Under the pieces are notes generated by a model. The model ran no database searches. It had not been told where the DNA came from and was given only the letters and a program-made list of their open reading frames with translations. The translations under genes were made by a program, and so were the position numbers. Below, piece after piece: positions 7,351 through 11,909 of a stretch of DNA of 64,000 nt. Numbering within the stretch: the stretch's first letter is position 1; every line of letters begins with the position of its first letter. This DNA comes from Streptomyces sp. NRRL F-5123 (GTDB lineage Bacteria; Actinomycetota; Actinomycetes; Streptomycetales; Streptomycetaceae). Location: positions 62,001 through 126,000 of the forward strand of contig NZ_JOHY01000007.1 in assembly GCF_000721495.1 (NCBI RefSeq), written 5' to 3'.

Positions 7351-7401
7351 TCACGAGCCGGCCGCGTTCACCACCGTGAGCGGCAGCAGCTTCTTGCCCG
7401 T
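7351..7401 (-). pseudogene. Orphaned original 3' end of the TIGR03960 radical SAM gene
   Basis: Read on the minus strand these bases encode TGKKLLPLTVVNAAGS and a TGA stop. The intact gene at 9833-11794 has the same TGKKLLPLTV but then a different ending supplied by the element. The fragment is therefore the displaced native C-terminus, left at the distal end of the insertion. It has no start and is not expected to be translated alone. Confidence 0.85.
7379..7401. other. Left attachment site (att core copy 1)
   Basis: Twenty-three bases starting agcggcagcagcttcttg, identical to 9870-9892. Outside (left) lies the native 3' end of the host gene, inside lies the recombinase leader; the integrase ATG is 75 bp away, as usual for integrases that act on an adjacent attP. 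Confidence 0.85.
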
Positions 7402-7476
7402 TGGGCCGATCTGGATGTGGGTGTCCATCTGAAGGCACATGGACAGGTGCCTAAATCCAGGCCTACGGTTCCAGAT

Positions 7477-9090
7477 ATGAGGACACGCACGCGGAAACGG
7501 TCCAAGGACGACCAGCGACAGTACTCGGTCGAGTCCGAATGGTCCGAGGCAGATCTCGCGCTTCTGGAGGAGCTGAAGCAGGCCGAGGCCTTACTCCCCG
7601 AGGACGCGCCCCGGGCCCTCTTGTCCGTCCGCCTGTCTGTGCTGACGGACGAGACCACTTCGCCGGTCCGGCAGGAACTCGACCTTCGCATCCTGGCAAG
7701 GGAGCGCGGCTGCCGAGTCGTCGGCGTCGCCTCGGATCTCAACGTGTCGGCAACGAAGGTTCCGCCGTGGAAGAGGAAGGAACTCGGCGAGTGGCTGAAC
7801 AACCGTTCGCCCGAGTTCGACGAGCTCTTGTTCTGGAAACTCGACCGTTTCGTACGCCGCCTCTCCGATCTCTCGACGATGATCGAGTGGAGCCTGAAGC
7901 GCGGGAAGAACCTCGTCTCGAAGAACGACAACCTTGATCTCACCACGACCGCCGGGAAGATCATGGTCACGATCATCGGCGGCATCGCCGAGATCGAGGC
8001 AGCGAACACTTCCACCCGGGTCACGAGCCTGTGGGACTACGCGAAGACTCAGGAAAAGTGGCTCATCGGCAAGCCCCCGTACGGCTACGTCTCGGGCGAG
8101 GACGAGTCGGGGAAGATCACCCTTGTCATCGACCCTGACGCCGCAGCGGCACTGCACTGGGCCCGGCGCATGGCGCTCCGAGGACGCTCCGCGGGTTTCA
8201 TGGTGCGCTGCCTGAAGCGGTCCGGTCTCATGAGTCAGGGGCTCACCGTTGCGACGCTCCACCGCCGCCTCCGTAATCCCGCACTCCTCGGCTACCGGGT
8301 GGAGGAGGACGGGCAGGGAGGGCAACGGCGCTCGAAAGCGGTACTCGACAAGGGCGGCAGGCCCATCACAATCGCTCCCCCGATCTTCACCGAGGAGGAG
8401 TTCGAGACGCTCGGGGCCGCTCTCGACAAGCGCAGCAAGAACCAGCCCCCGCGCCGCGTCGGCGGACTGACCCAGTTCCTCGGCGTCCTCGTGTGCGCCG
8501 GCTGCAAGACGAACATGACCGTGCAGCTCACGAACAACAAGTTCGGGACCTACCAGTACCTGCGGTGCCGCAACTGCAAGAGCGGCGGACTCGGAGCGCC
8601 CAACCCCGAGCAGGTCTACGAGCGACTCGTCGAGGACGTACTCAAGGTCCTCGGCGACTTCCCGGTGGAGGTTCGCCAGTACGCCGAGGGCGCCAAGGCC
8701 CGGCGAGAGGTCAAGCGCCTCCAAGACTCCATCGCTCTCTACATGAGGGAACTCGAACCAGGGGGCCGGTCCACGAAGACCCGGTTCACGAAGGAACAGG
8801 CAGAGGCGACACTCGACAAGCTCATCGGGGAACTCGAAGCCATCGACCCCGAGACGGTGAAGGACCGGTGGGTCGACGTCCACGGCGGCAAGACCTTCCG
8901 CGAGCACTGGCAGCAGGGCGGCATGGAGGCGATGTCCGCAGACCTGTACCGAGTAGGCATCCGGTGCGAGGTGACCCGCACGAAGGTGCCGAAGGTACGC
9001 GCACCGAAGGTGCACCTGCGCCTGCTGATCCCAAAAAACGTGCGCGAGCGGCTCGTGGTCCGGGAGAACGACTTCGCAGAAGCCTTCTGA
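7477..9090 (+). CDS. Large serine recombinase (site-specific integrase)
   Basis: A 537-residue enzyme. The resolvase-type catalytic domain carries the nucleophile Ser54 in RLSVLTDETTSPVRQ, with conserved LDRFVRRLSD and the IGGIAEIEA segment. A recombinase (PF07508-type) domain follows (GKPPYGYVSG, LRNPALLGYRV), then a zinc ribbon with CAGC and CRNC, and a coiled-coil-bearing C-terminus (about residues 400-460). About 50 residues precede the catalytic strand, longer than usual. Such enzymes join attP and attB by double-strand cleavage with a phosphoserine link and need a separate directionality factor for excision. The gene looks intact, and its codon use is slightly less GC-extreme than its neighbours, in keeping with transfer. 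Confidence 0.95.
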   Translation: MRTRTRKRSKDDQRQYSVESEWSEADLALLEELKQAEALLPEDAPRALLSVRLSVLTDETTSPVRQELDLRILARERGCRVVGVASDLNVSATKVPPWKRKELGEWLNNRSPEFDELLFWKLDRFVRRLSDLSTMIEWSLKRGKNLVSKNDNLDLTTTAGKIMVTIIGGIAEIEAANTSTRVTSLWDYAKTQEKWLIGKPPYGYVSGEDESGKITLVIDPDAAAALHWARRMALRGRSAGFMVRCLKRSGLMSQGLTVATLHRRLRNPALLGYRVEEDGQGGQRRSKAVLDKGGRPITIAPPIFTEEEFETLGAALDKRSKNQPPRRVGGLTQFLGVLVCAGCKTNMTVQLTNNKFGTYQYLRCRNCKSGGLGAPNPEQVYERLVEDVLKVLGDFPVEVRQYAEGAKARREVKRLQDSIALYMRELEPGGRSTKTRFTKEQAEATLDKLIGELEAIDPETVKDRWVDVHGGKTFREHWQQGGMEAMSADLYRVGIRCEVTRTKVPKVRAPKVHLRLLIPKNVRERLVVRENDFAEAF

Positions 9091-9225
9091 ACATCTCCGT
9101 CGACACGCGGGCGCAGCCGCCTCCCCCGGTGTCCGGGAACGGCGCTTCCGTGCCGTCGTCGCGCTTTCTCCGGATCAAGCAGAACCAGTATCAGCGTGTC
9201 CACCATTCAAAGGGAGGCCCCGACC

Positions 9226-9645
9226 TCACTCCGGGCGCGCCTCACTGGATACGCTCTCGGCGCCGTGCGCGTCCGGCTGCGTGACCGGGAGGGGCGGCGG
9301 AGGGGTCCACTGCAAGCGAGCCTTCTCGATGTGGCCGAGCATCCACGCACGCTTTTCAGCGTTCGCGGAGTTCCACACCCAGCTCATCCGCCGGGCCCGC
9401 ATGGCTTGCTCAATGCTCGTGAGCTGACGCCGACGGCGACCCGGCCACGGCCGACCGCTGGACGGCATGTTGTGACACAGGTCAGCGAGCATCCGGATAC
9501 GCGCGAGCGCCTCGGCGGGCGGGACCTCGTCCCTCAGCGCCCGTCCGGCAAGGTACCGGATCTCGATGAACGCCATTGCCGACAGGTACGCGGCCAGCGC
9601 CACGTCGTCGACATCCGCCGAACCCCGCCGCTTCCTCAGACCCAC
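9226..9645 (-). CDS. Hypothetical protein of the integrative element (139 aa)
   Basis: The GTG at 9645 opens VGLRKRRGSADVDD; the reading frame overlaps the end of the 63-aa gene by ten bases, implying translational coupling. Residues about 15-60 look helical with the motif RIRMLADLCHNMP, followed by a very basic patch GRPWPGRRRRQ and a Pro-rich tail. Short actinobacterial proteins with a similar LADxCHN motif occur near mobile genes as far as I recall, but I cannot name the family. Candidate roles are the recombination directionality factor or a small cargo regulator. It converges on the integrase with 135 bp between the stops. Confidence 0.65.
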   Translation of the reverse strand: MGLRKRRGSADVDDVALAAYLSAMAFIEIRYLAGRALRDEVPPAEALARIRMLADLCHNMPSSGRPWPGRRRRQLTSIEQAMRARRMSWVWNSANAEKRAWMLGHIEKARLQWTPPPPLPVTQPDAHGAESVSSEARPE

Positions 9646-9827
9646 TCGACCTCGCTGCGGACGCGGGGGCAGGCCGGAGGAGTCGGGAGGGGCGTCCGGG
9701 GAGCCATGGACTGCGGCTCCCCGGACTTCCGCGCGCCGAACGCGCCCAGGCCGGACAGGACAGCGGCCACCTCGGCCTCGCCGAGACCGGCAAGCGCATC
9801 TGTGATCTGCGTCACGGGGTCGCTCAC
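9636..9827 (-). CDS. Small protein of the integrative element (63 aa)
   Basis: The GTG at 9827 begins VSDPVTQITDALAGLGEAE, a predicted amphipathic helix, and continues to a Pro/Arg tail. It starts five bases after the new stop codon of the radical SAM gene (TAA at 9833-9835) and ends inside the start of the 139-aa gene. The three genes thus form a coupled transcription unit in which the element's genes ride on the host message. No family recognised; too short to assign a role. Confidence 0.55.
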   Translation of the reverse strand: MSDPVTQITDALAGLGEAEVAAVLSGLGAFGARKSGEPQSMAPRTPLPTPPACPRVRSEVEWV

Positions 9828-9832
9828 GCCCG

Positions 9833-11794
9833 TTACGCGTTCTCGCTGGTCACAGAGTTCTTGACGGTCAGCGGCAGCAGCTTCTTGCCCGTGGGGCCCG
9901 TTTGTGGCCATGTGTCGAACTGCGGACAGACACCGCAGTCGAAGCAGGGGGTCCAGCGGCAGTCCTCGACCTCGGTCTCGTCGAGGGCGTCCTGCCAGTC
10001 CTCCCACAGCCAGTCCTTGTCGAGGCCGGAGTCGAGGTGGTCCCAGGGGAGGACCTCCTCGGCGGTGCGCTCGCGGGTGGTGTACCAGGGGAGGTCGACG
10101 CCCGTGGCCGGGAGGGCGGCGGCGCAGGCGCGCATCCAGCGGTCGTAGGAGAAGTGCTCGCGCCAGCCGTCGAAGCGGCCGCCGTCCTCGTAGACCGCGC
10201 GGATCACTGCGCCGACCCGGCGGTCGCCGCGGGAGAGCAGGCCCTCGACGATGCCGGGCTTGCCGTCGTGGTAGCGGAAGCCGATGTTGCGGCCGTACTT
10301 CCTGTCGCCGCGGATCGCGTCGCGCAGCTTCTCCAGGCGCGCGTCGGTCTCCTCGACGCCGAGCTGCGGCGCCCACTGGAAGGGGGTGTGCGGCTTGGGC
10401 ACGAAGCCGCCGATGGAGACGGTGCAGCGGATGTCGTTCTGCCCGGTGACCTCGCGGCCCTTCTGGATGACGCGCTTGGCCATGTCGGCGATCTGCAGCA
10501 CGTCCTCGTCGGTCTCGGTGGGCAGGCCGCACATGAAGTAGAGCTTCACCTGCCGCCATCCGTTGCCGTACGCGGTCGCGACCGTACGGATCAGGTCCTC
10601 TTCGGAGACCATCTTGTTGATGACCTTGCGGATGCGCTCCGAGCCGCCCTCGGGCGCGAAGGTCAGGCCGGAGCGGCGGCCGTTGCGGGTCAGCTCGTCG
10701 GCCAGGTCGATGTTGAAGGCGTCGACCCGGGTGGACGGCAGCGACAGGCCGATCTTGTCGTCCTCGTAGCGGTCGGCCAGGCCCTTGGCGACCTCGGCGA
10801 TCTCGCTGTGGTCCGCGGACGACAGCGACAGCAGGCCGACCTCCTCGAAGCCGGTCGCCTTCAGACCCGCCTCGACCATCTCGCCGATGCCGGTGATGGA
10901 GCGCTCGCGCACCGGGCGGGTGATCATACCGGCCTGGCAGAAGCGGCAGCCGCGGGTGCAGCCGCGGAAGATCTCCACCGACATCCGCTCGTGCACGGTC
11001 TCGGCGAGCGGCACCAGCGGCTGCTTCGGGTAGGGCCACTCGTCGAGGTCCATGACGGTGTGCTTGGACACCCGCCACGGCACCCCGCTGCGGTTCGGCA
11101 CGACCCGGGCGATCCGGCCGTCGGCCAGGTACTCGACGTCGTAGAAGCGCGGGACGTACACCCCGCCGGTCTTCGCCAGCCGCAGCAGCAGCTCGTCGCG
11201 CCCGCCGGGACGGCCCTCGGCCTTCCAGGCGCGGACGACCTCGGTGATCTCCAGCACGGCCTGCTCGCCGTCGCCGATCACGGCCGCGTCGATGAAGTCG
11301 GCGATCGGCTCGGGGTTGAACGCGGCGTGCCCGCCGGCCAGCACGACCGGGTCGTCCAGCGTGCGGTCCGCGGCGTTCAGCGGGATGCCGGCCAGGTCGA
11401 GCGCGGCGAGCATGTTGGTGTAGCCCAGCTCGGTCGAGAAGCTCAGGCCGAAGACGTCGAAGGCCCGCACCGGGCGGTGCGCGTCCACCGTGAACTGCGG
11501 CACGCCGTGCTCGCGCATCAGCGCTTCCAGGTCCGGCCACACGCTGTACGTGCGCTCCGCGAGGACGCCCTCGCGCTCGTTGAGCACCTCGTAGAGGATC
11601 ATGACGCCCTGGTTGGGCAGCCCGACCTCGTACGCGTCCGGGTACATCAGCGCCCACCGCACATCGGCGGCGTCCCACTCCTTGACGGTGGAGTTCAGCT
11701 CACCGCCCACGTACTGGATCGGCTTCTGGACGTGCGGGAGAAGTGCTTCCAAGCGCGGGAAGACCGACTCGACAGGCATCTCGGCGACTTTCAT
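9833..11794 (-). CDS. TIGR03960 family B12-binding-like radical SAM protein
   Basis: A 653-residue protein from the ATG at 11794 (MKVAEMPVESVFPRLEALL). It has an N-terminal B12-binding-like domain (YPDAYEVGLPNQG, VFGLSFSTELGYTNML, LAGGHAAFNPEP) and a radical SAM core whose [4Fe-4S] cysteines are in CTRGCRFCQAG. The family's C-terminal CFDCGVCPQF is also present. The native end was LTVVNAAGS; insertion of the element changed it to LTVKNSVTSENA with no frame loss, so the enzyme is probably still active. It works with the TIGR03936 domain protein (974-1747); the reaction is not established to my knowledge. It is followed closely by the element's two small genes. Confidence 0.93.
   Translation of the reverse strand: MKVAEMPVESVFPRLEALLPHVQKPIQYVGGELNSTVKEWDAADVRWALMYPDAYEVGLPNQGVMILYEVLNEREGVLAERTYSVWPDLEALMREHGVPQFTVDAHRPVRAFDVFGLSFSTELGYTNMLAALDLAGIPLNAADRTLDDPVVLAGGHAAFNPEPIADFIDAAVIGDGEQAVLEITEVVRAWKAEGRPGGRDELLLRLAKTGGVYVPRFYDVEYLADGRIARVVPNRSGVPWRVSKHTVMDLDEWPYPKQPLVPLAETVHERMSVEIFRGCTRGCRFCQAGMITRPVRERSITGIGEMVEAGLKATGFEEVGLLSLSSADHSEIAEVAKGLADRYEDDKIGLSLPSTRVDAFNIDLADELTRNGRRSGLTFAPEGGSERIRKVINKMVSEEDLIRTVATAYGNGWRQVKLYFMCGLPTETDEDVLQIADMAKRVIQKGREVTGQNDIRCTVSIGGFVPKPHTPFQWAPQLGVEETDARLEKLRDAIRGDRKYGRNIGFRYHDGKPGIVEGLLSRGDRRVGAVIRAVYEDGGRFDGWREHFSYDRWMRACAAALPATGVDLPWYTTRERTAEEVLPWDHLDSGLDKDWLWEDWQDALDETEVEDCRWTPCFDCGVCPQFDTWPQTGPTGKKLLPLTVKNSVTSENA
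9870..9892. other. Right attachment site (att core copy 2), inside the radical SAM coding sequence
   Basis: Identical to 7379-7401. On the minus strand it encodes TGKKLLP in frame. Immediately beyond it, inside the element, the codons CTG ACC GTC replace the native CTC ACG GTG, keeping LTV by synonymous codons before the protein ends diverge. Confidence 0.85.
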
Positions 11795-11909
11795 CAGCTG
11801 ACGGTGGGCGGCGGTCCCGGGGCGCGACGCGCCCTGACGGGGACGGGTGACCCTCAAGAGTACCCGGCCGCCCGCGCCTCCCGAGCCGCTCGCGTCCCCC
11901 GGGGGTGGC

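What the first reader, a model, noticed from the sequence alone, without database searches (positions are those of the whole stretch)
7379..9892. A 2.5-kb serine-integrase element that inserts into, and repairs, the 3' end of a radical SAM gene
The two 23-bp direct repeats and the displaced original C-terminal codons at 7351-7401 reconstruct the event directly. The element contains only an integrase and two small genes. It is far smaller than usual serine-integrase elements, yet its integrase is intact and its ends are clean, so it may be a complete minimal mobile unit. The 23-bp shared core is also longer than usual for this enzyme class.
Basis: partly seen in the sequence, partly recalled or inferred. 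Interest (0 to 1): 0.82.

Follow-up and report, generated by a model that had tools for sequence, protein, structure and literature searches.

The report
Small gene-mending Streptomyces integrase element
A 2.5-kb piece of mobile DNA sits near the end of a bacterial gene and supplies that gene with a new ending; it belongs to a family already described from Streptomyces and its phages, but the way family members mend the gene and hook their own excision gene onto it seems not to have been described.

Summary
The element is real, but its reported core is wrong. It is a small member of the published phage-Joe/SCO2603 class of Streptomyces serine-integrase elements (Fogg et al. 2017), which use this same radical SAM gene. 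It carries an integrase, a gp52-like directionality factor (RDF) and one cargo gene of unknown function. The 23-bp repeats are not the crossover: strand exchange lies 32 bp beyond them, in the Pro codon of Cys-Pro-Gln (7433-7434 and 9924-9925). The repeats exist because both ends encode the gene's conserved GKKLLPLT tail: the displaced host copy on the left, the element's replacement on the right. All 33 integrase-linked gene ends examined (one doubtful) encode a complete tail, and all 54 phage records with a close integrase carry one beside the integrase gene. In 13 of 13 phage loci read and 31 of 33 element loci an RDF gene starts between 4 bp before and 23 bp after the end of the tail's stop codon, so integration welds the RDF gene to the host gene. 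My searches found no description of this. The window's copy may be frozen: its central dinucleotide is AG on the left, GG on the right. Of 30 elements measured, three are smaller.

The parts
7351..7431 (-). displaced original 3' end of the host radical SAM gene (QMDTHIQIGPTGKKLLPLTVVNAAGS*)
   Evidence: joins in frame with 9923 onward
7379..7401 (.). left 23-bp repeat; coding similarity, not the crossover
7409..7458 (.). attL (extent by analogy with the annotated 50-bp phage Joe attP); predicted central dinucleotide 7433-7434 = AG
   Evidence: phage Joe attP and dinucleotide annotation; alignment of 52 loci
7477..9090 (+). serine integrase, 537 aa (Resolvase, Recombinase, Zn_ribbon_recom)
   Evidence: 64-69% identical to integrases of 54 phage records; up to 90% to other elements
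9226..9645 (-). cargo ORFB, 139 aa, actinobacterial family of unknown function; overlaps the end of the RDF gene
   Evidence: 63 relatives with an alignment query; model pLDDT 83; no PDB fold match at E<=0.001; no PADLOC model
9636..9827 (-). RDF (gp52-like), 63 aa, GTG start 5 nt after the host gene's new stop codon
   Evidence: phrog_11213 E 0.001, the family that holds phage Joe gp52 (E 3e-29); HMM of 30 other element RDFs E 2e-24
9833..9922 (-). replacement 3' end supplied by the element (QFDTWPQTGPTGKKLLPLTVKNSVTSENA*)
   Evidence: counterpart beside attP in phages
9870..9892 (.). right 23-bp repeat; coding similarity, not the crossover
9900..9949 (.). attR (extent by analogy); predicted central dinucleotide 9924-9925 = GG
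9833..11857 (-). TIGR03960 B12-binding radical SAM gene carrying the new end (longest ORF; start codon not determined)

Best explanation
An integrated, gene-restoring serine-integrase element of the phage-Joe/SCO2603 class, reduced to integrase, RDF and one cargo ORF. Integrase joins the element's attP to an attB near the 3' end of the TIGR03960 gene and exchanges strands at a 2-bp GG inside the Pro codon of Cys-Pro-Gln. This cuts off the last 26 host codons (shown: they lie displaced at the left end). The left arm of attP and the DNA beyond it encode a substitute tail of 29 codons plus stop, which keeps the conserved GKKLLPLT motif, so the host gene stays complete (shown by sequence; protein function inferred). 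The element's RDF gene starts 5 nt after the new stop codon on the same strand, so in the integrated state it is a downstream cistron of the host gene (arrangement shown; co-expression inferred). RDF plus integrase would recombine attL with attR to excise the element (inferred from phage Joe gp52). In this copy the left central dinucleotide reads AG and the right one GG, which predicts poor or no excision (inferred).
For: Class and target: Fogg et al. 2017. Integrase kinship. RDF. Host-type uninterrupted ends in 28 of 34 same-genus genomes and the in-frame join. Replacement tail complete at 33 of 33 integrase-linked gene ends (L104 doubtful). Tail found in 54 of 54 phage records with an integrase match at E<=1e-100, the same 54 accessions, and in no other of 50,697 records at E<=10 (lists compared by eye). 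RDF start at -4 in 13 of 13 phage loci and -4 to +23 in 31 of 33 element loci. Third-position bias in the 9-codon core of phage tails: 41 of 53 pairwise differences. Dinucleotides.
Against: No experiment on this copy. The GG crossover is a prediction in the Joe paper and by alignment here; if the overlap were the adjacent TG, the copy would not be mismatched. Over the whole phage tail the codon-position bias is only suggestive (Fisher p 0.06). The window RDF gave no tblastn match in phages even at E<=10 and is linked to gp52 through profiles. Individual phage tail hits have E from 2e-4 to 0.1. One element (L052) lacks an RDF.
Confidence: 0.85

Rival explanations
1. A decayed remnant of a larger integrative element (for instance an AICE-type element): the cargo was lost and only the ends, integrase and RDF remain, now immobile.
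For: Window attL dinucleotide is AG whereas 11 of 12 relatives with 85-90% integrase identity read GG. An integrase-only 1,652-bp copy (L052) and a tail without integrase (G021) show that decay happens.
Against: Integrase and RDF are intact, and small int-RDF copies recur: 2,127 and 2,372 bp here and NRRL F-5123 in Fogg et al.. The cargo ORFB has relatives 52-94% identical, so it is a maintained gene.
Confidence: 0.4
2. A phage satellite: a stripped element that occupies attB and is excised and packaged with help from a Joe-like phage that shares att sites and RDF type.
For: Same attB gene and the same att architecture as 54 phage records; Fogg et al. show that an occupied site lowers phage-vector integration; PLE satellites in Vibrio use a serine integrase with a phage RDF (PMC6002521, passages).
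Against: It has its own RDF, no packaging-related gene was recognised, and no phage-mediated transfer is known for this class (not searched beyond the papers cited).
Confidence: 0.12
3. Not an insertion: the repeats arose by local duplication of the gene end.
For: Two copies of the gene end flank the stretch.
Against: The tails differ as attB and attP arms do (IQI versus WPQT), the right arm matches the phage Joe attP arm, an integrase-RDF pair lies between them as in 31 of 33 loci, and relatives have one copy.
Confidence: 0.01

Closest known systems
SCO2603 element of Streptomyces coelicolor and its relatives (Fogg et al. 2017, PMC5311408)
   Same: Same attB gene (SCO2606-like radical SAM), homologous integrase, gp52-type RDF next to attR, few other genes; int-RDF-only versions reported
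   Different: Different small cargo gene (not compared with SCO2603's neighbours here); 2.5 instead of 3.9 kb; tail replacement and RDF-host gene adjacency are not mentioned in the passages I searched
Streptomyces phages Joe, OzzyJ and relatives (Camvirus, Likavirus)
   Same: Integrase 64-69% identical, same attB gene, attP flanked by RDF and int, replacement tail encoded beside attP
   Different: Complete phage genomes of about 48-52 kb; phage tails have a different sequence (LAPPGGKMLPLTV...)
Gene-reconstructing prophages: dnaJ2 bifidoprophages (PMC6109161) and e14 in icd (PMC11148124)
   Same: Integration into the 3' part of a protein gene that is rebuilt by phage DNA
   Different: dnaJ2 phages use a tyrosine integrase with a 35-bp core (passages); e14's enzyme class is recalled, not read. 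Here the shared crossover is a predicted 2 bp
SCCmec in rlmH (recalled, not read)
   Same: Serine recombinase inserting at the 3' end of a gene that stays functional
   Different: Ccr enzymes; only the last codons are involved; weak model similarity of the window integrase to CcrB and CcrC (far below cut-off)

Membership tests
Joe/SCO2603-class integrative elements | Large serine integrase homologous to Joe Int / SCO2603 | tested here: met
   68.6% over 92% to Joe integrase; three recombinase domains. SCO2603 itself not compared
Joe/SCO2603-class integrative elements | attB near the 3' end of the SCO2606-like radical SAM gene | tested here: met
   TIGR03960 E 7.5e-211; flank join restores the frame
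Joe/SCO2603-class integrative elements | gp52-type RDF gene adjacent to attR, int adjacent to attL | tested here: met
   phrog_11213 E 0.001; profile-profile probability 98.5 between 13 phage and 31 element RDFs
Joe/SCO2603-class integrative elements | Matching central dinucleotide GG in attL and attR | tested here: not met
   attL AG, attR GG in the window; GG in 40 of 51 readable attL and 27 of 27 readable attR; 9 of 27 pairs mismatched. This bears on mobility, not on kinship
Joe/SCO2603-class integrative elements | Excision and integration activity | not testable with these tools
   Needs strain or cloned sites
AICE (actinomycete integrative and conjugative element) | Replication initiator and FtsK-like transfer gene in the element | tested here: not met
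   Only int, RDF and ORFB between the att sites; such genes are present in L082
Phage satellite | Helper-phage-dependent excision or packaging | not testable with these tools
   No packaging-related gene recognised among the three

The most novel reading that the evidence does not exclude
A whole class of serine-integrase phages and elements carries a ready-made replacement 3' end of its target gene, fused by a 4-bp overlap or a few bases to its excision-factor gene. Integration then does two jobs at once: it mends the host gene and places the excision switch under the host gene's own transcription and translation, so that the state of a host radical SAM gene gates excision.
Probability: 0.35. 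Interest if true: 0.72.

Novelty: new member of a known kind. Interest (0 to 1): 0.5.

Why it matters
The element adds one small member to a known class. The class-wide point matters more. Rebuilding a protein gene at an insertion site is documented for tyrosine integrases, and Fogg et al. explained tolerance of this site by its closeness to the gene end. The sequences show instead that phages and elements bring a substitute tail, conserved at the protein level beyond the annotated attP. That explains why so many elements can use a conserved gene. Vectors built on these integrases that carry only the short attP would truncate or alter the gene end, which could be checked. The RDF-host gene weld gives a simple, testable idea of how excision could be coupled to host expression.

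Tried and rejected
The 23-bp repeats as recombination core: rejected. Local duplication: rejected. 'Smallest of its kind': rejected (Fogg et al.). ORFB function: no Pfam, NCBIfam or PADLOC model, a chance-level PHROG match (E 0.033), a confident helical model without a PDB fold match at E<=0.001, so left open. ORFB in other elements: tblastn against every locus held found only the window (and L001, its own genome). Codon-position test on phage tails: clear in the 9-codon core (12 of the 13 phage tails fitted the motif; 41 of 53 differences at position 3), only p 0.06 over the whole tail; both reported. The phage-RDF HMM ranked 30 of 31 element RDFs above all 987 decoys; L101 was not in the printed list. 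Two searches with the window RDF used a frame shifted by one base; they were repeated in the right frame, again without a phage tblastn hit but with the PHROG match. Whether gene rebuilding or RDF coupling by this class is in print: searches and a word search of Fogg et al. (no 'restor', 'overlap' or 'stop codon') gave none; most subscription papers are not held, and Ko et al. 2020 (phages OZJ, WTR) was not available.
Full report
OBSERVATION. The 23-bp direct repeats at 7379-7401 and 9870-9892 are real and lie in a 42-nt repeat of 86% identity. Between them lies a 537-aa serine integrase (7477-9090 +) and two small genes on the minus strand. The radical SAM gene on the minus strand (9833-11857) belongs to TIGR03960 (E 7.5e-211). 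At the right end it reads CPQFDTWPQTGPTGKKLLPLTVKNSVTSENA*; at the left lies the displaced QMDTHIQIGPTGKKLLPLTVVNAAGS*. Joining the flanks gives one uninterrupted frame.

WHERE THE CROSSOVER IS. The phage Joe record annotates a 50-bp attP and a central GG. Fogg et al. call this GG predicted. Aligning Joe attP and the ends of related elements puts the window's crossover at 7433-7434 and 9924-9925, inside the Pro codon of Cys-Pro-Gln and 32 bp beyond the repeats. In 52 loci with distinct integrases, counting the window and leaving out loci with duplicate integrase sequence, attL could be read in 51: GG in 40, AG in 5, GA in 2, and GT, CT, AA, AC in one each. attR could be read in 27 and is GG in all 27. 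Of the 27 loci with both, 18 are GG/GG and 9 mismatched, the window among them with AG/GG; the anchors of L052 and L093 are weak and L104 may not be an element end. The 24-nt block coding for GKKLLPLT differs between the two ends by 0 to 9 bases in 30 elements and is identical in 2. So the 23-bp identity is coding similarity and not a required core.

WHAT IT IS. Fogg et al. 2017 (PMC5311408; section 6 read whole; passages) describe phage Joe and an S. [quoted passage not shown] The window's integrase is 68.6% identical to Joe's over 92% of its length and up to 90% to those of other Streptomyces elements. The window's own genome has no second close copy: two other matches in it have E of 3e-4 and 4e-4. 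Integrases at E<=1e-150 occur in 31 of 297 genomes sampled in the family.

THE RDF. The 63-aa protein at 9636-9827 matches phrog_11213 (E 0.001), the family of phage Joe gp52 (3e-29). An HMM from 13 phage RDFs finds it at 4e-5 and ranks 30 of 31 element RDFs above all 987 decoys, the best decoy having E 0.0069; L101 was not in the printed list. An HMM from the other 30 element RDFs finds it at 2e-24. The two profiles align with probability 98.5 over 61 columns. A direct tblastn in phages found nothing.

THE REPLACEMENT TAIL. In 33 distinct loci where the integrase and the radical SAM gene end were both in the stretch (35 rows, two of them re-fetches of L025), the gene end is a complete tail with a stop codon. 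L104 is doubtful, since it has a host-type tail and no recognised attL. Nineteen distinct tail sequences have a W-type arm (mostly DTWPQ) and 13 another arm. A 22-aa consensus tail, searched in 50,697 phage records at E<=10, matched 54 records, each match with E from 2e-4 to 0.1 and upstream of the integrase on the opposite strand. They are the same 54 accessions (42 phage names) that hold an integrase at E<=1e-100 (lists compared by eye). The other 667 records with weaker integrase matches gave no tail hit. In the 13 phage loci read, the tail frame is open and ends at a stop that overlaps the RDF start by 4 bp in 13 of 13; in elements the RDF start lies -4 to +23 nt from the end of the stop codon in 31 of 33, absent in L052 and L104. 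Joe's annotated attP ends about where DTWPQ ends, so GKMLPLTV lies outside it. In the 9-codon core of 12 phage tails (7 distinct sequences) 41 of 53 pairwise differences fall on third positions; over the whole tail, variable columns are 6, 6 and 11 of 22 each, Fisher p 0.06. Protein-level constraint is therefore supported for the core, not for the last codons.

EMPTY SITES AND SCARS. Of 35 same-genus genomes, 34 hold the gene. Four have an element integrase and element-type tail (window, G031, G005, G010; in G010 gene and integrase are on different contigs). G018 has a host-like tail followed by an RDF-like gene. G021 has an element-type tail with no RDF, integrase or second tail in the 10 kb read, possibly a scar. 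The other 28 have a host-type tail and neither RDF nor second tail in the stretch read.

SIZE AND CARGO. Thirty elements with both ends measured run from 1,652 to 13,948 bp; the fetched stretches were at most about 15 kb, so larger ones were missed. The window (2,491 bp) is fourth smallest. One of the closest integrases (G221, L082) heads an element-like stretch with RepSA and FtsK/SpoIIIE genes. The window's cargo ORFB belongs to an actinobacterial family of unknown function: 5 relatives by single-sequence search, 63 by alignment; P0004, a relative, runs into a displaced radical SAM tail. No other fetched locus holds ORFB. The fold model is helical, mean pLDDT 83, without a PDB match at E<=0.001.

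MECHANISM. Shown by sequence: insertion, displaced tail, substitute tail, RDF adjacency, dinucleotide mismatch. Inferred: that the substitute tail keeps the protein working, that the RDF is read from the host transcript, that the GG is the overlap, and that AG/GG blocks excision (from recalled work on central dinucleotides of serine integrases, not read here).

COMPARISON. Rebuilding of dnaJ2 by bifidoprophages with a tyrosine integrase is described in PMC6109161 (passages), and e14 in icd in PMC11148124 (passages). PLE islands combine a serine integrase with a phage RDF (PMC6002521, passages). A 2026 vector paper notes that three phages use a distinct radical SAM gene (PMC12924846, passages). 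Fogg et al. suggest that insertion so close to the gene end may not cause loss of function; the words restor-, overlap and stop codon do not occur in their main text. I found no account of tail replacement or RDF welding for this class in searches.

VERDICT. New member of a published class, with an apparently undescribed class-wide property. The claim of a long core is rejected, the claim of a complete mobile unit is open and somewhat weakened.

Noticed in passing
L049 (G021), around 130-216: Radical SAM gene with an element-type DTWPQ tail but no integrase, RDF or displaced tail in the 10 kb read: possibly a scar left after loss of an element.
   Followed up: partly
L052 (G005): Integrase-only element of about 1.65 kb with substitute tail and no RDF gene behind it.
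   Followed up: partly
P0004 (metagenome protein, 168 aa): ORFB relative whose reading frame runs into a displaced radical SAM tail (PPMDTHIQIGPTGRKLLPLTVV), as if the integrase gene had been lost from between them.
   Followed up: no
L029, L030, L032, L036, L037: A second, distant serine-integrase match (28-33% identical to the window's) in the same stretch between the first integrase and the radical SAM gene: perhaps tandem or nested elements.
   Followed up: no
L082:13149-14557: Cas2 and Cas1 genes about 9 kb beyond RepSA/FtsK genes, with no radical SAM gene end yet reached; whether they lie inside the element is unknown.
   Followed up: no
L054 (G018), around 159-440: Host-like tail followed 1 nt later by an RDF-like gene (64 aa); no Joe-class integrase in the 10 kb read.
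   Followed up: no
L111, L114, L115 (phages phiScoe55, Kaine, Sujidade): The RDF-like frame is open beside attP but is not annotated on that strand in these records.
   Followed up: no
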